A DNA stretch of 35,908 nucleotides from a virus, in IMG/VR virus record IMGVR_UViG_3300033143_002231, positions 1 to 35,908 of that record, one strand, 5' to 3'. The notes beneath the pieces were generated by a model. That model was given only the letters and a program-made list of their open reading frames with translations, made no database searches and was not told the DNA's origin. Of the stretch, positions 15,644 through 24,171 are shown in pieces (the stretch's first letter is position 1; every line of letters begins with the position of its first letter). A program made the translations under genes and the position numbers.

Positions 15644-16240
15644 TTATATGATTCCTTTCATCGCATTTATCTGTGCCATCTGATCGACAGTTGCACTCTT
15701 TTTGCTTGTCATAAGCTTTCCGTATTCTCCAGAATTTCTTTTTGTTGGCTTGAAAGTATCGTGTTTAATTTTTTTCTTGTGTTCTATTGCGGCCACCTCT
15801 TTTTTGAACTTGCTCTTTCTTTTTTGTCTAGTGATAACCTTCTTTGGCTTCTTAGCATATTTCTTTATTCCTAATACTTTTTTTGGGTTAGCAAATGGCA
15901 TCTTAGAAATTCTTGAGAGATCTACATTTTTAGAGAAATATTTAACAAACTTCTCAACTTCTTCGACAGTACGATAATCGTCACAATTATTATTACTCTT
16001 ATCAGAGTTGCATTCTTCACATAATATCTGCATATTCATAATATCAAATGTCTTACTTGGATCTATACTAACTGGAACAATATGATCTAGTTGCAGATTG
16101 TTAGTAGAATTACAGTTGATACATTTTTTACCATATACATGTAGAATATTAGCTTTTATGTATTTATAAGTTATTACTTCATTCTCTGTTAATCTTCTGT
16201 TTTTCAATCTTAAAAGTTTAACTTCTTTTGTTTGACTCAT
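15644..16240 (-). CDS. HNH endonuclease with basic C-terminal tail
   Basis: The 198-aa protein, with start chosen at ATG 16240 behind AAGGAAACGCT, has a classical zinc-supported HNH domain. It comprises Cys40-x2-Cys43, the catalytic strand 'LQLDHIVPVS' (Asp52-His53), Asn69 and a second pair Cys74-x2-Cys77 followed by 'NSDKSNN'. After the domain comes about 100 residues of basic, lysine-rich sequence (KKYAKKPKKVITRQKRKSKF and on). It may be a free-standing homing-type nuclease or a packaging-type nicking enzyme. Location at the head of the leftward block, far from the terminase, favours the former. Confidence 0.8.
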   Translation of the reverse strand: MSQTKEVKLLRLKNRRLTENEVITYKYIKANILHVYGKKCINCNSTNNLQLDHIVPVSIDPSKTFDIMNMQILCEECNSDKSNNNCDDYRTVEEVEKFVKYFSKNVDLSRISKMPFANPKKVLGIKKYAKKPKKVITRQKRKSKFKKEVAAIEHKKKIKHDTFKPTKRNSGEYGKLMTSKKSATVDQMAQINAMKGII

Positions 16241-16287
16241 AGCGTTTCCTTGATTTTGAACATACTTCACCTAAAGAGGTTATGAAT

Positions 16288-16606: not shown

Positions 16607-16663
16607 TAGATACCTGGATCCTAGGTCTATATAATTTTTATATTATACACATTGCGCTTAATC
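16607..16663 (+). promoter_or_regulatory. Repeated promoter/operator element, copy A
   Basis: The core 16628-16663 matches 17758-17793 at 30 of 36 positions, and similarity extends upstream (TAGATA then TGGAT). It contains TATAAT-like boxes, the palindrome-like TATAATT..TTATATTATA and an invariant TACAC plus GCGC. It lies 40 bases ahead of the exonuclease start. A phage-specific promoter with an overlapping operator is the simplest reading. Confidence 0.7.
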
Positions 16664-16702
16664 CTTTACTTTATGTTTAACAACAAACAAAGGAAAATCA
16701 CA

Positions 16703-17740
16703 ATGAACGTTTATGAATCGTTAGCAAATAAATCAATTGAGGCCATAGATAAACCATCTAAGGCCTTCAAAAATCAAATGAAACTATATGGCAAGAAGGT
16801 TGAGGCAATGGCTAAGATCGATCCTGAACATGCTAGGGAGCTGATGGATTTCTGGCAAGTTCTCATAGCAAATAAGTTTAATGGGTTCTTTGATGTAGCC
16901 GATGAAATTTATCACTTATCTGCTGGATTAAATCAATCTTCTCTCAAGGATTTTAAAAGATCTCAAGGAAAGTATTTCCATAATAGATACGTGCAACCAA
17001 AGAAGTATAACTCACCTGCAATTGATGAAGGTTCTTTGATTCATGACTTAATTTTAACACCTGAGAACCTTGATAAATATTACAATGACGATGATCTTTG
17101 TAAGTGGGCTGAAGATGCCTACGAAGATGAGAAAGGAAAGAAGGCTGGAAAAATTAGATCTACTGCAATTTATAAAGAGCAAAGAACGGTAATTGAAAAA
17201 GAAGGGAAGAAATTAATTAAAGGTGAGTTATTTAACAACCTTGATTATTTAAAAAGAGAGATTCTTGATAACCAATTCTTCAAAAGTTTAATTCATGGTG
17301 CATTTATTGAAAAAGCTATGTATTGCATTTGTAAGCATTCAGGCCTTCTTATACGTGGTAAATGTGACCTTATTTCTAAAGATGGATATATCACAGACAT
17401 AAAAACAATAGATGAAACCTTTTCTTTAGATCCATTAGATATTGGTAGAAGAATGTTGAATCTTGGACAAAATCTTCAAGCTCCACACTATGAAAACATG
17501 TATGAACAAATCTTAAAAAGAAAGCCAAAGAACTTTATATATTTTCACATTGAAAGACGCGCGCCATTTGAAACAAATATTGGGCCATTGGATGAAGGTG
17601 CAGCGGATAAGTCTGAGCAGGATTATTTCAGTCTTCTACATGATGCTAAAATAGGTTATGAAGAAGATTTTAAGCATAGGCAAAAAGTAATTAAGATTAA
17701 TCCTATCGCTTTTCCCCACTGGGCTTTTAATGAAAACTAG
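16703..17740 (+). CDS. RecE/exonuclease VIII-like PD-(D/E)XK exonuclease
   Basis: This 345-aa protein starts at ATG 16703, since AAAGGAAAATCACA precedes it; an upstream TTG is ignored. It has the architecture of PD-(D/E)XK phage exonucleases: 'IDEGSLIHDLIL' (motif G-x2-IH, His114), an acidic residue Glu203 (HGAFIEKAM), the core 'GLLIRGKCDLISKDGYITDI' with Asp222 and Asp232-x-Lys234, and a downstream 'LNLGQNLQAPHYENMYEQI' helix (Q-Y motif). It would resect double-stranded ends to make 3' single strands for the neighbouring RecT. Element A lies just upstream. Confidence 0.82.
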   Translation: MNVYESLANKSIEAIDKPSKAFKNQMKLYGKKVEAMAKIDPEHARELMDFWQVLIANKFNGFFDVADEIYHLSAGLNQSSLKDFKRSQGKYFHNRYVQPKKYNSPAIDEGSLIHDLILTPENLDKYYNDDDLCKWAEDAYEDEKGKKAGKIRSTAIYKEQRTVIEKEGKKLIKGELFNNLDYLKREILDNQFFKSLIHGAFIEKAMYCICKHSGLLIRGKCDLISKDGYITDIKTIDETFSLDPLDIGRRMLNLGQNLQAPHYENMYEQILKRKPKNFIYFHIERRAPFETNIGPLDEGAADKSEQDYFSLLHDAKIGYEEDFKHRQKVIKINPIAFPHWAFNEN

Positions 17741-17793
17741 ATAGATTGGATGCGAAGTATATAATTATTATATTGTACACTTCGCGCCTAGTC
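17738..17793 (+). promoter_or_regulatory. Repeated promoter/operator element, copy B
   Basis: Second copy of the element at 16607-16663, in the gap after the exonuclease stop and 40 bases ahead of the next start. Order, spacing to the ATG and the conserved TACAC and GCGC parts are kept although the flanking genes differ. TATAATTATTATA forms a near-perfect palindrome here. Confidence 0.7.
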
Positions 17794-17832
17794 TTATAAA
17801 TTAGTTACATCAAAACAACTAAGGAAATAAGA

Positions 17833-17991
17833 ATGCAAAAAAACGAAATCCTAGAAAATGTAAGTCAAGAAATGATCGACTATTTTAATAAGTCGGTTTC
17901 AAATCAGCCAGCATTTCAAAATATGCAATTAGTATCTGACTGGATGGATGACAGTTATCAGATGGTTGAGGTGTCCAATGGGAAAAGTTAA
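17833..17991 (+). CDS. Small hypothetical protein
   Basis: This ORF encodes 52 aa (MQKNEILENVSQEMIDYFNK ... VEVSNGKS). AAGGAAATAAGA before ATG is a good ribosome site, and element B lies upstream, so it is the first gene of its transcript. It is acidic and helical at the N-terminus, with a 'DWMDDSYQMVEV' segment. No family recognised. It overlaps the next gene by 14 bases. Confidence 0.6.
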   Translation: MQKNEILENVSQEMIDYFNKSVSNQPAFQNMQLVSDWMDDSYQMVEVSNGKS

Positions 17992-18142
17992 ATTTAGAAG
18001 GTATCAATACCACATAGTGAAGCATAACAGGAAAAAATATCCTGCTTTGTGGACTGAGTGGACTGATAAACCTTGGCACGAACTAGAAAGAAAAACAAAA
18101 ACAAGAATATTAATAATAAAAACAGAAACAAAGGAAGATTAA
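17978..18142 (+). CDS. Small basic protein upstream of recT
   Basis: The product is 54 aa starting MGKVKFRRYQYHIVKHNRKK; GAGGTG five bases before ATG 17978 fixes this start over an upstream ATG. It is rich in Arg, Lys, His and Trp (WTEWTDKPWHELERK). Basic, aromatic composition suggests nucleic-acid binding. Its stop overlaps the recT start (TAATG), so it is translationally coupled to recT. Function unknown; a helper in recombination is a guess. Confidence 0.6.
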   Translation: MGKVKFRRYQYHIVKHNRKKYPALWTEWTDKPWHELERKTKTRILIIKTETKED

Positions 18143-18999
18143 TGACAGACCAACAAGAAAACAAATTAGAATTAGCGGTTACAAATCTTGGATCAAAGTT
18201 AATTACTGGCCCAACAGCAAAGAGAACATTTGAAGAGTCGTGGCTTCGTGGGTTCCTGATTGATAATCAAGGATTGAAAGAAAGATACCTGCTTGATTTT
18301 CTTCATAAGTCACAATTAACTGGAGCAAATCCAGCACTTGGACAAATATTTCTGACAACATTTTTCGATTCACAAAAAAACGAAAAGGTTGGAGTGACTT
18401 TATTTAGTTATGAATTTCTAAGGGCCAGAGCTGTTGACAATGGAATAGATATGAAAAGGCTTTCTTGTGAATATCACTCTATGGAAGATTTCAATCCAAT
18501 TAAAAAAGAAATGGAATTGGTTGCACTTGCAACAGCTAAATACACAAATAATGACGGTGTAGAAATTAAGTACAAGGCATATTTTGATGAGTACAACAAT
18601 CCTAGAAATCCATTGTGGAGATCCAAGGCAAAGAGAATGATTGAGAAATGCGCTGAGGCTGGAATGCTTAGGCGCTTATGCCCTCAGGCTATGGCAGGAA
18701 TCTTTATGCGTGAAGAAATGGAAAGAGAGAACGAGAAGCAAGTTACAGAGGTTGAAAATCTAAATGACTTATCGAATGATATTCTTGCTCCAGCAGAGGA
18801 GAAAGAATCAATTGCAATAGAGGTAAAATCTGCAAAACACCAGGAAGAGAAGACAGAAGAACCTGTGCAATATCAAGAGGTTACTGAGCCACTTTTTCAC
18901 GAAAGCGAATTTATGGAAAAAGGAAAAGCAAAAAAGACAACAAGGAAGAAGGCTGGAGATGTTAAGTTTTCACTAAACAAAGAGGAAAAATCAAAATGA
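18142..18999 (+). CDS. recT: RecT-family single-strand annealing protein
   Basis: The 285-aa protein starts at ATG 18142 behind AAAGGAAGATTA. Diagnostic segments are 'SQLTGANPALGQIFLTTFF' in the N-terminal half, then 'VGVTLFSYEFLRARAVDNGI', and the family core 'NPLWRSKAKRMIEKCAEAGM' followed by 'LRRLCPQAMAGIFMREEME'. This equals the 'NPxWxxxPxxMLxxKAxxxAxRxAFP..xxGxYxxxE' pattern of RecT/Bet proteins. The C-terminal 75 residues are acidic then lysine-rich (KAKKTTRKKAGDVKF). It anneals complementary strands exposed by the exonuclease two genes upstream, forming a Red/RecET-type pair for concatemer formation and repair. Confidence 0.85.
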   Translation: MTDQQENKLELAVTNLGSKLITGPTAKRTFEESWLRGFLIDNQGLKERYLLDFLHKSQLTGANPALGQIFLTTFFDSQKNEKVGVTLFSYEFLRARAVDNGIDMKRLSCEYHSMEDFNPIKKEMELVALATAKYTNNDGVEIKYKAYFDEYNNPRNPLWRSKAKRMIEKCAEAGMLRRLCPQAMAGIFMREEMERENEKQVTEVENLNDLSNDILAPAEEKESIAIEVKSAKHQEEKTEEPVQYQEVTEPLFHESEFMEKGKAKKTTRKKAGDVKFSLNKEEKSK

Positions 19000-19253
19000 T
19001 AAGAATACACAGAAAAACAAATAGAAAAATTTACATCTATGCAGACAAAGAACAGGGAATCGAAGGGAGAGATATTTCTCCGCTTGAGGTTCTTGAGCTT
19101 GCAAGATCTGGAGTCAAAATAGTTTATACAACTGACGTTCCGGAGATCACACTTTGCTATATTTTAATAAAGGGGTTATTGAGCGAGGTTCGAGAGGGGC
19201 ACGTTATACCAACAGAAGAGATACTATCTCTAAAATCGATAGCTAATATCTAA
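18996..19253 (+). CDS. PhaR-like (PHB/PHA accumulation regulator) DNA-binding protein
   Basis: The 85-aa protein resembles the PHB_acc_N DNA-binding domain of PhaR: 'IRIHRKTNRKIYIYADKE' parallels 'IxKYxNRRLYDTxxS', 'GRDISPLEVLELARSGVKI' parallels 'YVTLEDIAELVxxGxxxxV', and 'DVPEITLCYILIKGLLSE' parallels 'xGEDITRxxLxxIIxE'. In bacteria this domain represses polyhydroxyalkanoate genes; here it is free-standing with no other domain. Its ATG overlaps the recT stop (ATGA), and a hairpin terminator follows, so it closes the recombination operon. It is a plausible phage transcription regulator. The match is by eye. Confidence 0.5.
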   Translation: MIRIHRKTNRKIYIYADKEQGIEGRDISPLEVLELARSGVKIVYTTDVPEITLCYILIKGLLSEVREGHVIPTEEILSLKSIANI

Positions 19254-19267
19254 TAATTATACTTAAC

Positions 19268-19292
19268 AATGCTCTCGATAAAAGGGAGCATT
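19268..19292 (+). terminator. Terminator after the recombination operon
   Basis: AATGCTCTC and GGGAGCATT form a nine-pair stem (one U-G) with a seven-base GATAAAA loop, followed by TT then AAAG. It lies 15 bases after the PhaR-like stop and should stop or reduce rightward transcription before the next gene. Confidence 0.7.
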
Positions 19293-19336
19293 TTAAAGAC
19301 AGGTAGAACGGGGAATACCAATGAAAAGGAAAATAT

Positions 19337-19618
19337 ATGAAAAAAGTAATGATTAATACAGAGTGTGCAAGATGTTTCACTATAGAATTAGACGAGATCG
19401 CTAAATATAGGGCCAATATTTATCAAGACAGAGACGATACAACATTTAAAGAAGAATATGACTTCTTAATGAACGATGAATCGGAAGCAACTGACTGGTT
19501 ATTTAACAATATGGACTGGTACGAATGTAGAACACTGAAAGAAGTCACTCAGAAAGCGAGAGATTTAGACGAGTTAGAAGTTGATGATTACCACGTGTAT
19601 TCAGATACAAAACTATAG
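19337..19618 (+). CDS. Acidic hypothetical protein
   Basis: The product is 93 aa, strongly acidic (MKKVMINTECARCFTIELDE ... DLDELEVDDYHVYSDTKL), with a Cys-Ala-Arg-Cys pair near the N-terminus that may bind metal. AAAAGGAAAATAT before ATG is a fair ribosome site. It is the first gene after the terminator at 19268-19292. Not recognised. Confidence 0.6.
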   Translation: MKKVMINTECARCFTIELDEIAKYRANIYQDRDDTTFKEEYDFLMNDESEATDWLFNNMDWYECRTLKEVTQKARDLDELEVDDYHVYSDTKL

Positions 19619-19654
19619 AAGCAAGTAAACCAACTTAAAACAAGGGAAAGAGTA

Positions 19655-20341
19655 ATGGATATTAATAGCGTAATTCAAGAAAGTGTTAAGAGTATTAATT
19701 TTGAACAAATTGTTAAAGAGGCGGCAACTGAAAAGATTCAAGCCGCTGTAAAAAGTGCGGTCGCCGAACAATTTAGAAGTTATTCGGACTTCTCAAAAGG
19801 TCTAGAGGAACAAATTAAAAAAGAACTGGCCGTTGATTTTACAAAAATACAACTACCAGAATATAGAGATTTTTTAATAAGTAGCGTTAATAATTCTTTA
19901 GCATTACTAACAAATGAAGAACAAGCCCAAGAAATTGTTAAATATATAAATACAAAAGTCATTGGTGAAAACAGAGACAAGATAGAATTTTCTGATTTTT
20001 GGGACGAGTTAACGGAGATGGTTAACGAGGGTATAGACGAAGAAAATAGAGACGGAAGGTTTAATATTCAATGCACCAAAGACGAAAACTCTTACTCCTC
20101 GGACTATTTTAAAATTCGAATAACGGAAAACGAAGAAAGTAGTTTCTCAAGCAGAAAGAAAGAGAATGAAGTTATATATGCGGCCTTCTTGAATGGGAAA
20201 ATTTATCACATGAGAGATAACGGGGGGATACTGGAGAACTTTTCGACAGTAACAACATGGTTTAAAGCGTTAAAGTTTAGACAAACTACCATTAATGAAA
20301 TGAGCGAAGAAGAGCATTACTTTAATGAAAGAGATTATTAA
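19655..20341 (+). CDS. Hypothetical phage protein
   Basis: A 228-aa protein with an N-terminal helical part ('MDINSVIQESVKSINFEQIV', 'SYSDFSKGLEEQIKKELAVD') and a C-terminal beta part ('FKIRITENEESSFSSRKKEN', 'VIYAAFLNGKIYHMRDNGGI'). The N-terminal 'V-x-S-x-x-x-E-x-x-x-S-Y-S-D-F-x-K-x-L' pattern recurs in unrelated tailed phages as an unnamed family, so it is a genuine conserved gene of unknown role. Ribosome site AAGGGAAAGAGT before ATG. Confidence 0.65.
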   Translation: MDINSVIQESVKSINFEQIVKEAATEKIQAAVKSAVAEQFRSYSDFSKGLEEQIKKELAVDFTKIQLPEYRDFLISSVNNSLALLTNEEQAQEIVKYINTKVIGENRDKIEFSDFWDELTEMVNEGIDEENRDGRFNIQCTKDENSYSSDYFKIRITENEESSFSSRKKENEVIYAAFLNGKIYHMRDNGGILENFSTVTTWFKALKFRQTTINEMSEEEHYFNERDY

Positions 20342-20372
20342 AACGGTATAGATAAAACTATTGGAGAAAATA

Positions 20373-20696
20373 ATGGCAAGTAACGAATATTCACATTGTA
20401 ATAACTGTTTACATTGGGACAAAGAGAACCTTTTTTGCAATAAGCACGAGAACATGGCAACCAAAAAAGGATGGTGTGGTGAGCATATTGAAAGAAACCC
20501 ATTAGATGCAAACGACATAGGTGTTGAGTACAGACTTAGACGTGATCATATAATGCTAGAAATGCAACACGGCAAGGATAATGTAAAACCAGTTGAAGAC
20601 TTATTAAAATCATTTGGTTGGGACGGTGTTGAGAGATTAAAGCAAGGAAAATGGCCAGAAGAACAAAACACAAACAGTACACAGGATTCTATATGA
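20373..20696 (+). CDS. Small Cys4-type putative zinc-binding protein
   Basis: The product is 107 aa. TTGGAGAAAATA before ATG 20373 decides the start. The N-terminal half contains Cys9-x2-Cys12, Cys22 and Cys36 (HCNNCLHWDKENLFCNK and GWCGEH), an arrangement expected for a small zinc ribbon seen in many phage accessory proteins. The C-terminal half is helical. The stop overlaps the next gene's ATG (ATGA). Function unknown. Confidence 0.62.
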   Translation: MASNEYSHCNNCLHWDKENLFCNKHENMATKKGWCGEHIERNPLDANDIGVEYRLRRDHIMLEMQHGKDNVKPVEDLLKSFGWDGVERLKQGKWPEEQNTNSTQDSI

Positions 20697-21088
20697 GTTT
20701 TAGTTTACCAAAAGAAGACTTAGAGAAAATGGGCTTTGTGCCAAAGAAGCGCAAAAGCATCTCTAAAAAAGACAGAGAGGCGATAGCTAAAAAAACCAAT
20801 GATAAATGTGGGTATTGTGGGATTGACCTACCTAAAAGGTGGCACGTTGACCATGTAAAAGCATTTTACAGAGGTGGTGATTGTAGCGAAGAGAACTTTA
20901 TGGCCTCATGTCCACAGTGCAATATGTATAAAGGCCCTTTTAGTGTTGAACAGTTTAGAAGTCTTTTAAGGACACAAGTAGATAAGGCAAGGGATTACTC
21001 CGTTAACTTTAGGTTTGCAGAGAAATATGGACAAGTAGAAATAACAAATAAACCGATAGTGTTTTACTTTGAAGAAATACAACAGTAG
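20693..21088 (+). CDS. HNH endonuclease
   Basis: With start at ATG 20693, coupled by ATGA to the preceding stop, the protein is 131 aa; an upstream ATG at 20651 would add 14 residues but its AAGG is only three bases away. The HNH core is complete: Cys39-x2-Cys42, 'WHVDHVKAFYRGG' (His51, Asp53-His54), Asn68 and Cys73-x2-Cys76 followed by 'NMYKG'. It cuts or nicks double-stranded DNA. The C-terminal half continues with an unassigned beta domain. It may be a homing-type gene inserted among early genes. Confidence 0.82.
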   Translation: MSFSLPKEDLEKMGFVPKKRKSISKKDREAIAKKTNDKCGYCGIDLPKRWHVDHVKAFYRGGDCSEENFMASCPQCNMYKGPFSVEQFRSLLRTQVDKARDYSVNFRFAEKYGQVEITNKPIVFYFEEIQQ

Positions 21089-21113
21089 AAAACACACTAA
21101 CTAAAGGAATAAA

Positions 21114-21293
21114 ATGGAACCAATAACAGCACTAACACTAGCAACACTTTTAAAGATTAATGTATTTTGTTCTATGTTCATCGTAGAAATACCAGATTGC
21201 GAAAATGAAATACATCAATGCTTAACTGATGACATTTATACATTACCACAGTGTAAAACAGAATTTTTAATTGATAACTTTGGAGAACATTAA
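21114..21293 (+). CDS. Small cysteine-containing protein ahead of endolysin
   Basis: This ORF encodes 59 aa (MEPITALTLATLLKINVFCS ... TEFLIDNFGEH) with four Cys and a mildly hydrophobic N-terminal stretch. AAAGGAATAAA precedes ATG. It ends one base before the start of the NlpC/P60 gene, whose ribosome site lies inside its last codons, so the two are linked. It could be a membrane or secretion partner of the endolysin, or unrelated; the sequence does not decide. Confidence 0.6.
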   Translation: MEPITALTLATLLKINVFCSMFIVEIPDCENEIHQCLTDDIYTLPQCKTEFLIDNFGEH

Positions 21294-21294
21294 A

Positions 21295-21672
21295 ATGAAA
21301 CTTTCTACAATAGCAATGCTTTTTTTTGGAACACAGTACAAATGGGCTGGCAATAATCCTACAACAGGACTTGATTGCTCAGGTCTTGTTGTTGAGTGCT
21401 TAAGATCAATTGGAAAACATGGAAAATCTGACATGAACGCACAGATGATTTTCGATAAGTTTAAAGATGTTTCAAGTGTCGGTGAAATAAGAACCGATGC
21501 AATGCTATTTTTCGGCAAGGATTATCAGTCAATTACACATATTTCAATTGCAATAGACCATGAATTTATGGTTGAGGCAGGCGGAGAGGGTAGAGCTGAG
21601 TCAGACAGTGGTTACGTTAGAGTTAGGCCAATTAAGAATAGAAATGATTACTTAACTTCTATTAATCTTTAA
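21295..21672 (+). CDS. NlpC/P60-type endolysin (peptidoglycan endopeptidase)
   Basis: The 125-aa protein, starting at ATG 21295 (TTTGGAGAA upstream), matches the NlpC/P60 cysteine peptidase core. Catalytic Cys28 lies in 'YKWAGNNPTTGLDCSGLV', and His82 in 'SITHISIAID'. 'HEFMVEAGG' supplies the third polar position. It has no signal peptide and no cell-wall-binding domain, so it would need a holin to reach peptidoglycan, where it cuts the stem peptide. The family is usually 110-140 residues for the catalytic domain alone. The gene sits in the early block rather than with the holin candidates. The next gene overlaps its stop (TAATG). Confidence 0.78.
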   Translation: MKLSTIAMLFFGTQYKWAGNNPTTGLDCSGLVVECLRSIGKHGKSDMNAQMIFDKFKDVSSVGEIRTDAMLFFGKDYQSITHISIAIDHEFMVEAGGEGRAESDSGYVRVRPIKNRNDYLTSINL

Positions 21673-21911
21673 TGGCATTACTAATAAAGCAAATTGGAAA
21701 GCATAGATTCTTGAGAGTGACTTGCAGAAAAGCAAAATATTGTGATGTGTGCAACGGATTCATAAGAAGAAATGTTGACTATACTGCACATTGGAGAGGA
21801 ACTTCACAGAAGGGATCTTTTCATAACCAATGCGGAAAGAAAATAATTGAAGAACATGCTGATCGTGAAACAAGAATGGTCAGAATTAACAAGGATAATA
21901 AAATTGGCTAA
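21672..21911 (+). CDS. Small putative zinc-binding protein
   Basis: A 79-aa protein starting at ATG that overlaps the endolysin stop (TAATG). It contains Cys18, Cys24-x2-Cys27 and a C-terminal His-x2-Cys (FHNQC), the ligand set of a small PARP-type or treble-clef-like zinc finger. The rest is basic. The spacing Cys-x2-Cys ... His-x2-Cys is the main evidence. Function unknown. It overlaps the next reading frame by eight bases if that gene begins at TTG 21904. Confidence 0.6.
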   Translation: MALLIKQIGKHRFLRVTCRKAKYCDVCNGFIRRNVDYTAHWRGTSQKGSFHNQCGKKIIEEHADRETRMVRINKDNKIG

Positions 21912-22431
21912 TGTAATTAATGTTGTACATTTAAAAACTCATACAGAATTTAACTTGAGTAATAAGCCTGATCTTTTATGCAAAATCGACACAGAAGATT
22001 TCTACGAGCATATTGAACATCGAACTCATTGGTATATTCATCAATCGACAAAGGCAAATATTCAACGGTATTACATTAGGACAATTTGGGAAAAAGGAAA
22101 AGGCCATAAGCATCTACACAGAGAAGTTCTTGGCCTAGGTGAGTTTACTAAAGATAGTGTTGCAGATCATAGGATTAGTACAGAAACTCTCGACAACAGA
22201 AGAAGCAATCTTAAAGAGACAGACCACATAGGAAACTCAAGAAACAGGTACGACAGGAAAGAAAAGGATTACATAGATCCATATAGGGGTTGCGCAATAT
22301 GCCCTACCAATAAAGGTCACTATCAGGCACTTCTAAAATCTGTATACATAGCATCTAAAAATTCTATTAGCGAATTGCATGTAGCAATTGATATAAAGTT
22401 AGAACAACTTAAACAACAAGGGGAAATTTAA
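21904..22431 (+). CDS. HNH homing-type endonuclease
   Basis: The domain is a phage HNH nuclease: 'HKHLHREVLGLGEF' then 'SVADHRISTETLDNRRSNLK' and 'ETDHIGNSRNR'. The ADH and 'NRRSNL' parts give the catalytic His and metal Asn, and the C-terminus looks like an additional DNA-contacting helix. No ATG suits the context. The best start is TTG 21904 with AAGGATAATAAA directly upstream (175 aa); ATG 21856 would overlap the previous gene by 56 bases. Such enzymes nick double-stranded DNA and can act as free-standing homing endonucleases. Confidence 0.72.
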   Translation: MANVINVVHLKTHTEFNLSNKPDLLCKIDTEDFYEHIEHRTHWYIHQSTKANIQRYYIRTIWEKGKGHKHLHREVLGLGEFTKDSVADHRISTETLDNRRSNLKETDHIGNSRNRYDRKEKDYIDPYRGCAICPTNKGHYQALLKSVYIASKNSISELHVAIDIKLEQLKQQGEI

Positions 22432-22595
22432 TGATGCCAGAATATTATTCAAAAATAAATCAAGATGGTGATAATTGCATATATAAGAATGGTGAACTTA
22501 TGTTCATCTCTCTTGCAGTAATTGGAAAAAGATATTTTGATCGAAAGATTGAAGATCTTGGAAAGAGAAATATTCACGTAACGGACATGGACTAA
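22431..22595 (+). CDS. Small hypothetical protein
   Basis: This ORF encodes 54 aa from ATG 22431, or 53 from the second ATG 22434; the first overlaps the HNH stop (TAATG) and AAGGGGAAAT gives a fair ribosome site. The sequence (MMPEYYSKINQDGDNCIYKN ... KRNIHVTDMD) has a beta-hairpin-like middle and a helical end. Family not recognised. Confidence 0.55.
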   Translation: MMPEYYSKINQDGDNCIYKNGELMFISLAVIGKRYFDRKIEDLGKRNIHVTDMD

Positions 22596-22597
22596 CT

Positions 22598-22783
22598 ATG
22601 AATAATCAAAAAAGAAAGAAGCTAAATAAATCAAATCCAATGGCGCGAACTTTAAAGAGTTTTGTCCTGTATTATCCAGCACTTAGAAACGGGAAGACCG
22701 TGACAAGTATGCGCTTTAAGCATGATGGACTAAAGAAACATAACGATAAAAGGAAACAGGGAAAGGCATGTTTGGATAAATAA
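22598..22783 (+). CDS. Small basic protein
   Basis: The 61-aa protein is very basic (MNNQKRKKLNKSNPMARTLK ... HDGLKKHNDKRKQGKACLDK), with a 'SFVLYYPALRNGKTVTSMRF' core. It starts two bases after the previous stop with little ribosome site, suggesting coupling. A strong hairpin begins at its stop codon. It may bind nucleic acid. Not recognised. Confidence 0.55.
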   Translation: MNNQKRKKLNKSNPMARTLKSFVLYYPALRNGKTVTSMRFKHDGLKKHNDKRKQGKACLDK

Positions 22784-22810
22784 AGAAAGGGGCATCATGC
22801 CCCAATCTTT
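22782..22810 (+). terminator. Symmetrical hairpin, terminator or RBS-sequestering stem
   Basis: GGGGCA-TCA-TGCCCC (22789-22803) is flanked by AAAGA and TCTTT, which can extend pairing across an AA/AA internal loop. Downstream U-richness supports termination. The stem also hides the AAAGGGG and ATG of a 25-codon ORF, so it may instead control translation. Confidence 0.6.
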
Positions 22811-22874
22811 AAAACTTACGCATAAGCTAACAACAAAACCACAATTAAGTATAACAGGGATAAATATAAAATGA
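22797..22874 (+). CDS. Possible 25-aa leader peptide (tentative)
   Basis: This ORF encodes MPQSLKLTHKLTTKPQLSIT and five more residues. AAAGGGG lies four to five bases before the ATG, and the stop overlaps the next gene's start (ATGA). Because its start lies inside a hairpin, it could be a translational control leader for the 71-aa gene rather than a functional peptide. Confidence 0.3.
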   Translation: MPQSLKLTHKLTTKPQLSITGINIK

Positions 22875-23086
22875 AAAGAATTGATAGTATTACGCAACAT
22901 ATTGTAGATAGGTTAGATGAACTTAGAGAAGATCTTAAAACATGCGAAGATAAATTTGCAAGGGAGCCCGACATGGACAGAGTTACCTATATAAGAGGGA
23001 CTAAGGACTGTATGCAAGTAAACAATAACATTTACATAAAAAGAGTCGGAGAAAGCTATTTAAGACCTGATGAGATCATGCAATGA
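22871..23086 (+). CDS. Small hypothetical protein
   Basis: The 71-aa product is helical and charged (ITQHIVDRLDELREDLKTCE ... YLRPDEIMQ). AGGGATAAATATAAA precedes ATG. It is preceded by the hairpin at 22782-22810 and overlaps the next gene's ATG (ATGA). Family not recognised. Confidence 0.58.
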   Translation: MKRIDSITQHIVDRLDELREDLKTCEDKFAREPDMDRVTYIRGTKDCMQVNNNIYIKRVGESYLRPDEIMQ

Positions 23087-23694
23087 AAAGCTGGATAGAT
23101 AAAGACGGATTTATCCACACAAAAGAATTTCCATCTGTAGATCAGTCAGAGAACGGCCCGATGTTTACAGGTTTGTTGAGTGTATTTGAGAATGGTAGAG
23201 ATAGGGCAATGTCAACCATTTCAATATGGAGTATCAATGACAGATTCAGGGCTAATCGTAATAGAGAATTTGGAAGCCATTTCTCTCACGACAATATGAC
23301 AGGATTGTATTGTCTAAATAAAAATAGAACTGGTGGAGTAAGTGTCGCGTTGCCTACAGCTAGGTGGAATGGTCGCTGGTGGCTGCATCCTCGTGACGTA
23401 TTTTTCTACTTTTGGTGTCATAACCCAAGAATAGGACTGTTTTTTCTGTGGATTTCGTCATTAGCTATGATTATTTCATGCATACAAAAATACAAGGTTA
23501 GAAATGGTGTTAAGTATATTAAAACAGATGGCAAGCTATTGGCTTTTCTGCGTTGTCGTTCTTTTGATCTCAAGATTACTTATGCTATTTGTACATTTTT
23601 TATTGAGCGCCATAAATATTTCGATAGCTGGAATGATGTAGCAAAGAGATATTTCAAAGAAGAAGGCCATCCGTTGAGATCCTTAATATGCTAG
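23083..23694 (+). CDS. Membrane-associated protein of unknown function
   Basis: A 203-aa protein with an N-terminal soluble part rich in Asn/Arg/Trp (NRFREFG-type segments, 'WNGRWWLHPRDVFFYFW') and one hydrophobic stretch 'IGLFFLWISSLAMIISCI' at about residues 116-134, probably a transmembrane helix. The C-terminal part is basic. It begins by ATGA overlap with the previous gene and overlaps the CsrA-like gene by seven bases. Similar unnamed proteins occur in other tailed phages; role unknown. Confidence 0.6.
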   Translation: MKSWIDKDGFIHTKEFPSVDQSENGPMFTGLLSVFENGRDRAMSTISIWSINDRFRANRNREFGSHFSHDNMTGLYCLNKNRTGGVSVALPTARWNGRWWLHPRDVFFYFWCHNPRIGLFFLWISSLAMIISCIQKYKVRNGVKYIKTDGKLLAFLRCRSFDLKITYAICTFFIERHKYFDSWNDVAKRYFKEEGHPLRSLIC

Positions 23695-23882
23695 TTCTTA
23701 CACTAAGAGACTTTAACAACACAAAAGAGTATATTGAGATAACACACAAATCTGGTGACGTTATTAAGATCTGCGCAGCCGAAATTAAAAACGGAAAAGT
23801 GCTATTTGGTCACGATGCAGAAAAAGATGAGTTTGATATTTTAAGAAAGAAAGTTCACGTTGATGTGAACCATAACAAATAG
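23688..23882 (+). CDS. csrA: CsrA-like RNA-binding regulator
   Basis: The 64-aa protein aligns by eye with CsrA/RsmA over its whole length. 'MLVLTLRDFNNTKEYIEI' equals the MLxLTRRxGExLxI strand. 'DVIKICAAEIKNGKVLFG' equals the 'ITVxVLxVxGxxVRIGI' strands. 'HDAEKDEFDILRKKV' equals 'xAPKxVxVHREEI', keeping the Arg (CsrA R44) needed for GGA-RNA binding. Position 6 is Leu instead of the usual Arg. CsrA dimers bind GGA motifs near ribosome sites and repress or stabilise mRNAs. A phage copy could redirect host mRNA use. It overlaps the upstream gene by seven bases. Confidence 0.62.
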   Translation: MLVLTLRDFNNTKEYIEITHKSGDVIKICAAEIKNGKVLFGHDAEKDEFDILRKKVHVDVNHNK

Positions 23883-23889
23883 GTGAAAA

Positions 23890-24171
23890 ATGAGTAATTG
23901 GACAAGTAAGGAAAATTTATTAAGTGGATTTGAGAGATGTGAAAAAGAGATCACAGATCTTGGAGATGATAATAAGGCAATGTCAGCACAGCTAAATATT
24001 ATAGACAGACTTCTTAATGTTATTGAATCCCACAAGCCAACAGAGTACGGACTGACTAGTCGTGGGGATAGTGATATTTTGTATAATATTAGACAAACTA
24101 AAAAAGCTCTTGAGGACAGTATGCCATCAACTTCTTCTGATTGTTGTAAAGCAACTACCGCTTCTTTTTAG
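23890..24171 (+). CDS. Hypothetical protein, end of the rightward block
   Basis: This 93-aa protein is helical with charged heptads (LLSGFERCEKEITDLGDDNK and MSAQLNIIDRLLNVIESHKP) and a Ser/Thr/Cys-rich tail. AGGTGAAAA precedes ATG. It is the last rightward gene. Its 3' end overlaps the end of the convergent lipoprotein gene by 17 bases, and only a weak terminator-like stem is seen there. Not recognised. Confidence 0.6.
   Translation: MSNWTSKENLLSGFERCEKEITDLGDDNKAMSAQLNIIDRLLNVIESHKPTEYGLTSRGDSDILYNIRQTKKALEDSMPSTSSDCCKATTASF

What the first reader, a model, noticed from the sequence alone, without database searches (positions are those of the whole stretch)
23688..23882. CsrA-like global regulator encoded by the phage, with a changed RNA-contact residue
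The 64-aa protein fits CsrA end to end and keeps the key C-terminal Arg, but has Leu in place of Arg at position 6. A phage CsrA could capture host mRNAs, compete with host CsrA for regulatory RNAs, or control phage mRNAs. Altered binding specificity is possible.
Basis: partly seen in the sequence, partly recalled or inferred. Interest (0 to 1): 0.7.

Follow-up and report, generated by a model that had tools for sequence, protein, structure and literature searches.

The report
Divergent phage CsrA-like RNA regulator
A small gene of an uncultured phage encodes a distant relative of the bacterial RNA-binding regulator CsrA that keeps its main RNA-gripping arginine but has lost both halves of a salt bridge that normally joins the two subunits, a variation on something already known in phages.

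Summary
Pfam CsrA matches end to end (E 5.9e-5, 23.4 bits) yet below the curated cut-off (27). A broader phage-CsrA profile gives 24.4 bits, and 0 of about 100,000 shuffles do as well. The closest relatives found, two uncultured viral contigs (L177, L195), pass the Pfam cut-off (38 bits), share 37-39% identity with it, and share its odd features: Leu6, the motif R44-K-K46-V and a 4-aa insert after R7.

R6-E46 is the published subunit-subunit salt bridge. Among 134 phage CsrAs compared, all seven with Leu or Phe at position 6 also lack E46, against one of 126 with R6. This is suggestive only, because there are few independent lineages. L2, L4, R7, A36 and R44 are kept.

Phage CsrA is already known (98 phage records; one knockdown shrinks plaques). 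Most likely this is an early-operon, CsrA-like RNA-binding homodimer with a rebuilt subunit contact. RNA binding, dimerisation and targets are untested. New variant of a known kind.

The parts
23688..23882 (+). csrA-like gene, 64 aa
   Evidence: Pfam CsrA E 5.9e-5; 24.4 bits and 0 of ~100,000 shuffles with a wider profile
23703..23705 (+). codon 6, Leu in place of Arg6
   Evidence: alignment: R in 126 of 129 phage CsrAs
23709..23720 (+). 4-residue insert (DFNN) right after R7, matched in place by HGGD in L177/L195 only
   Evidence: alignment
23742..23753 (+). extended strand1-strand2 loop (THKS), an extension also seen in huge-phage CsrAs
23844..23846 (+). codon 53, conserved Arg (R44 of E. 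coli CsrA)
   Evidence: R in 129 of 129 relatives
23850..23852 (+). codon 55, Lys in place of Glu46, the salt-bridge partner of Arg6
   Evidence: E in 126 of 129 relatives; joint table with position 6
23083..23694 (+). upstream gene (203 aa, unknown, apparently membrane-spanning) whose end overlaps the csrA-like start by 7 nt; coupling of translation is inferred
   Evidence: sequence; relatives
16652..24171 (+). run of + strand genes (RecE/Exo VIII-like, RecT-like, HNH nucleases, csrA-like, small ORF), read as the early operon

Best explanation
A phage-encoded CsrA-like protein made from the early (recombination) gene run. It folds as a CsrA-type homodimer, with the strand 1 / strand 5 surface binding GGA-type RNA through L2, L4, R7 and R44, and changes translation or stability of mRNAs in the infected cell (host mRNAs more likely than phage ones). 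The intersubunit R6-E46 salt bridge is replaced by Leu6/Lys46 and the strand 1-2 loop is lengthened. Shown: homology, retained and lost residues, gene position, relatives with the same changes. Inferred: dimer, RNA binding, early expression, host targets.
For: CsrA homology is beyond chance. Sister proteins in two unrelated GC-rich viral contigs (58% against about 36% GC) pass the Pfam cut-off at 38 bits and share L6, RKKV and the insert. L177 and L195 differ by 21 synonymous to 4 non-synonymous codons, so that form is under purifying selection. The eight best solved structures for a profile made only of these three proteins are all CsrA/RsmA, individually weak at E 0.03-0.1. Of the seven residues whose mutation hurts C. 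jejuni CsrA most (L2, A36, R44, E46, R6, L4, I42; PMC6692469), P0001 keeps five and loses only the salt-bridge pair. The gene lies in a run with RecT and Exo VIII-like genes. Precedent: knockdown of phage PTXU04's csrA homologue, which also lacks E46 (L103; L102), makes smaller plaques (PMC11879866).
Against: P0001 itself is below the Pfam cut-off. AlphaFold gave pLDDT 52-57 and no CsrA match by fold. R6A and E46A each impair other CsrAs. GGA motifs are not enriched in phage leaders, and no CsrB-like RNA was found. No related phage contig carries the gene at the same place. The host is unknown.
Confidence: 0.55

Rival explanations
1. Insulated regulator: replacing the intersubunit R6-E46 pair with Leu6/Lys46 stops the phage protein from forming mixed dimers with host CsrA, so it works as a private homodimer in a cell full of host CsrA.
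For: R6-E46 is an intersubunit contact in RsmA (PMC3791407); all seven phage sequences with Leu/Phe6 also lack E46; Lys46 would face host Arg6 in a mixed dimer (inference).
Against: Whether the host has CsrA is unknown; other phage CsrAs keep R6-E46; with correction for descent there are too few independent pairs to test (2 same way, 0 opposite, 1 no difference).
Confidence: 0.15
2. Decoy or dominant negative: it joins host CsrA or occupies CsrB-type RNAs without regulating mRNAs, freeing CsrA-repressed host genes.
For: The R44 RNA-contact residue is kept; R6 and E46 mutants of other CsrAs are impaired in regulation.
Against: Loss of the intersubunit pair argues against mixing with host CsrA; nothing in the window resembles a partner RNA.
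Confidence: 0.12
3. A CsrA-derived fold that no longer acts through RNA, for example as a protein-binding or virion part, or a decaying gene.
For: Two normally conserved functional residues are lost; the CsrA of phage JC1 was seen in virions by one peptide (PMC9144972); P0001 is on a long branch.
Against: R44, L2, L4, R7 and A36 are kept, and the L6/K46 form recurs in unrelated contigs under purifying selection.
Confidence: 0.15
4. Not a CsrA: chance resemblance of a small beta-rich ORF.
For: Below the Pfam cut-off, no PHROG match, uninformative fold model.
Against: Shuffle tests and bridging relatives L177/L195 with strong CsrA scores.
Confidence: 0.03

Closest known systems
CsrA/RsmA family (Pfam PF02599)
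   Same: Size, ML(V)LT(x)R start, L2, L4, R7, G33, A36, hydrophobic 42, R44; end-to-end profile match
   Different: Leu6 and Lys46 instead of the R6-E46 salt bridge, about 8 extra residues between strands 1 and 2, score below the curated cut-off
Lessievirus CsrA-like proteins (Burkholderia phages BcepIL02, BcepMigl, JC1; PHROG 8397)
   Same: Phage-encoded, Leu6, R7 and R44 kept, E46 lost (Pro) in BcepIL02/BcepMigl
   Different: No strand 1-2 insert; gene lies beside the major capsid gene, not in the recombination run
PTXU04 / Pondi CsrA homologue (gp28)
   Same: Phage-encoded, R44 kept, E46 lost, gene overlapping the end of a putative membrane protein gene (holin) at the end of a + strand run
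   Different: R6 kept, no insert; knockdown phenotype known (PMC11879866)
Huge-phage CsrAs (LR756511 and IMG/VR relatives L114-L140)
   Same: Lengthened strand 1-2 loop, about 33% identity to P0001
   Different: R6, K7 and E46 all kept
RsmN/RsmF of Pseudomonas aeruginosa
   Same: Rearranged CsrA relative with an insert and the conserved Arg
   Different: Its insert is a helix between strands 2 and 3, and it keeps the Arg8-Glu64 salt bridge (PMC3791407)

Membership tests
CsrA/RsmA (PF02599) | Score over the curated Pfam cut-off | tested here: not met
   23.4 against 27 bits; met by its nearest relatives L177/L195 at 38 bits. I therefore call it a divergent CsrA-like homologue, not a certified CsrA.
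CsrA/RsmA (PF02599) | Sequence homology beyond chance over the whole domain | tested here: met
   24.4 bits, 0 of ~100,000 shuffles
CsrA/RsmA (PF02599) | Conserved RNA-binding Arg44 in strand 5 | tested here: met
   R53; invariant in 129 relatives
CsrA/RsmA (PF02599) | L2 and L4 in strand 1 | tested here: met
CsrA/RsmA (PF02599) | R6-E46 salt bridge between subunits | tested here: not met
   L6 and K55
CsrA/RsmA (PF02599) | Five-strand, intertwined dimer fold | tested here: inconclusive
   AlphaFold monomers pLDDT 52-57, no PDB match by fold; no dimer modelling and no canonical control was possible
CsrA/RsmA (PF02599) | Binds A(N)GGA RNA and regulates translation | not testable with these tools
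   needs gel shifts and reporters
Self-regulating phage leader system | GGA motifs enriched in phage leaders | tested here: not met
   31 of 49 leaders against 26.7 expected, p 0.13; two or more ANGGA in 4 against 1.4, p 0.053

The most novel reading that the evidence does not exclude
A phage subfamily of CsrA has rebuilt its dimer contact (Leu6/Lys46 in place of R6-E46) so that it forms a homodimer insulated from host CsrA, a natural orthogonal CsrA.
Probability: 0.15. Interest if true: 0.65.

Novelty: new variant of a known kind. Interest (0 to 1): 0.4.

Why it matters
Phage CsrAs are common, but what they do is almost untested. This one belongs to a small group that keeps the RNA-gripping arginine and drops both halves of a subunit contact reported as indispensable in RsmE. 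It makes a clean test of whether that contact is really needed, and of whether phages insulate their regulator from the host's.

Tried and rejected
Direct relatives of P0001 by tblastn in phages, plasmids, IMG/VR and GTDB contigs: none. Presence of the gene in related phage contigs: none, but these are fragments with different early regions. Two AlphaFold jobs and a fold search: uninformative. A search with the MT837633 protein found nothing. Rfam found no CsrB-like or other RNA. The GGA leader test was negative. The tree is poorly resolved, so the position 6/46 association (Fisher p 7e-10 on 128 unique sequences) cannot be taken as independent evidence after correcting for descent. Chance resemblance was considered and rejected on the shuffle tests and the bridging relatives.

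Full report
The observation. The ORF exists as described. It starts with ATG, overlapping the end of the upstream gene by 7 nt, has no strong Shine-Dalgarno sequence of its own, and is followed 7 nt later by another small ORF. The window is an uncultured virus record of 35,908 bases, podovirus-like by its internal virion protein, head-tail adaptor and terminase matches. The gene sits near the end of a + strand run that starts with RecE/Exo VIII-like and RecT-like genes.

Is it CsrA? Pfam CsrA covers residues 1-59 with E 5.9e-5 and 23.4 bits, under the curated 27. NCBIfam is marginal and PHROGs silent. A profile built from 79 phage CsrAs put P0001 at 15.7 bits, reached by 1 of about 96,000 shuffles. 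Adding 50 CsrAs from further viral contigs, most of which share a lengthened strand 1-2 loop, raised it to 24.4 bits, reached by none of about 98,000 shuffles, and by 1 of 100,000 when residues 1-7 were fixed. Homology is therefore secure although remote.

Nearest relatives. A degenerate DNA pattern (M-L-x-L-T-L-[RK] ... G-x-x-A ... R) found four true CsrA-like genes in IMG/VR. Two of them, L177 and L195, read MLVLTLRHGGD...VRNGKVRVGIHAG.EVTVMRKKV. They score 38 bits with Pfam CsrA, are 37-39% identical to P0001, and share Leu6, a 4-residue insert after R7 and the RKKV motif. Their contigs are 58% GC against about 36% here, so this is not simply a close relative of the same phage. Between them 21 codon changes are synonymous and 4 not. 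A profile of only these three proteins finds CsrA/RsmA as its eight best solved structures.

What is changed. Position 6 is Arg in 126 of 129 other phage CsrAs and position 46 is Glu in 126 of 129; P0001 has Leu and Lys. Published work makes R6-E46 a salt bridge, between subunits in RsmA and within a subunit in RsmN (PMC3791407), said to be indispensable in RsmE (PMC6692469). Adding the four new sequences and P0001, the joint counts are R/E 125, R/P 1, S/E 1, L/K 3, L/P 1, L/S 1, L/R 1, F/A 1. Every Leu/Phe6 protein lacks Glu46. The association is strong as a raw table, but a tree offers only three independent pairs (typically two agree, none oppose, one shows no difference), so it is a lead, not proof. 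The search pattern selected Leu/Phe at position 6 but not the residue at 46. Of the seven residues most sensitive in C. jejuni CsrA, P0001 keeps five and loses only this pair.

How it probably works. The retained L2, L4, R7, A36 and R44 make a CsrA-type RNA-binding homodimer the most likely reading (0.55), acting in infected cells on host transcripts. This is inference: AlphaFold gave no usable model, and neither dimer nor RNA binding could be tested. The phage's own leaders show no excess of GGA motifs and there is no CsrB-like RNA. Rivals are an insulated homodimer, a decoy, and loss of RNA function.

Known context. Phage CsrAs are well documented: 98 records in the phage collection match E. 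coli CsrA, and surveys have been published (PMC7366521, PMC8450108). Knockdown of the PTXU04 homologue gives small plaques (PMC11879866); that protein (L103) also lacks Glu46, as its near-identical sister L102 shows in the alignment. Suggested roles include host reprogramming and suppression of CRISPR-Cas (PMC8450108). Leu6 itself has precedent in Lessievirus CsrA-like proteins. What is new here is the combined Leu6/Lys46 change with the insert in a small, conserved phage group.

Verdict.

Noticed in passing
window 23083-23694 +: 203-aa protein, apparently membrane-spanning, with a conserved FSHDNMTG...WLHP-DI-FY pattern; relatives only in uncultured viral contigs (L085 56%, L086, L087, L090 25-31%), no Pfam or PHROG match.
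   Followed up: partly
window 21271-21672 +: 133-aa ORF in the early run matches part of a minor tail protein family (PHROG 329, E 7e-14), an odd place for a tail gene.
   Followed up: no
window 15644-16270 -, 20651-21088 +, 21847-22431 +: Three HNH-type endonuclease-like genes in one 36-kb phage.
   Followed up: no
L130 with L164, and L116 with L149: Two large viral contigs (381 kb and 79 kb) each carry two different CsrA genes, one with the long strand 1-2 loop and one without.
   Followed up: no
L177 4821-5711 -: Papain-like cysteine protease gene in the contig that carries the nearest relative.
   Followed up: no
L193 5441-8595 -: A Phe6 CsrA-like gene lies about 2 kb from YqaJ exonuclease and ERF annealing-protein genes, echoing the RecT/Exo neighbourhood in the window.
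   Followed up: partly
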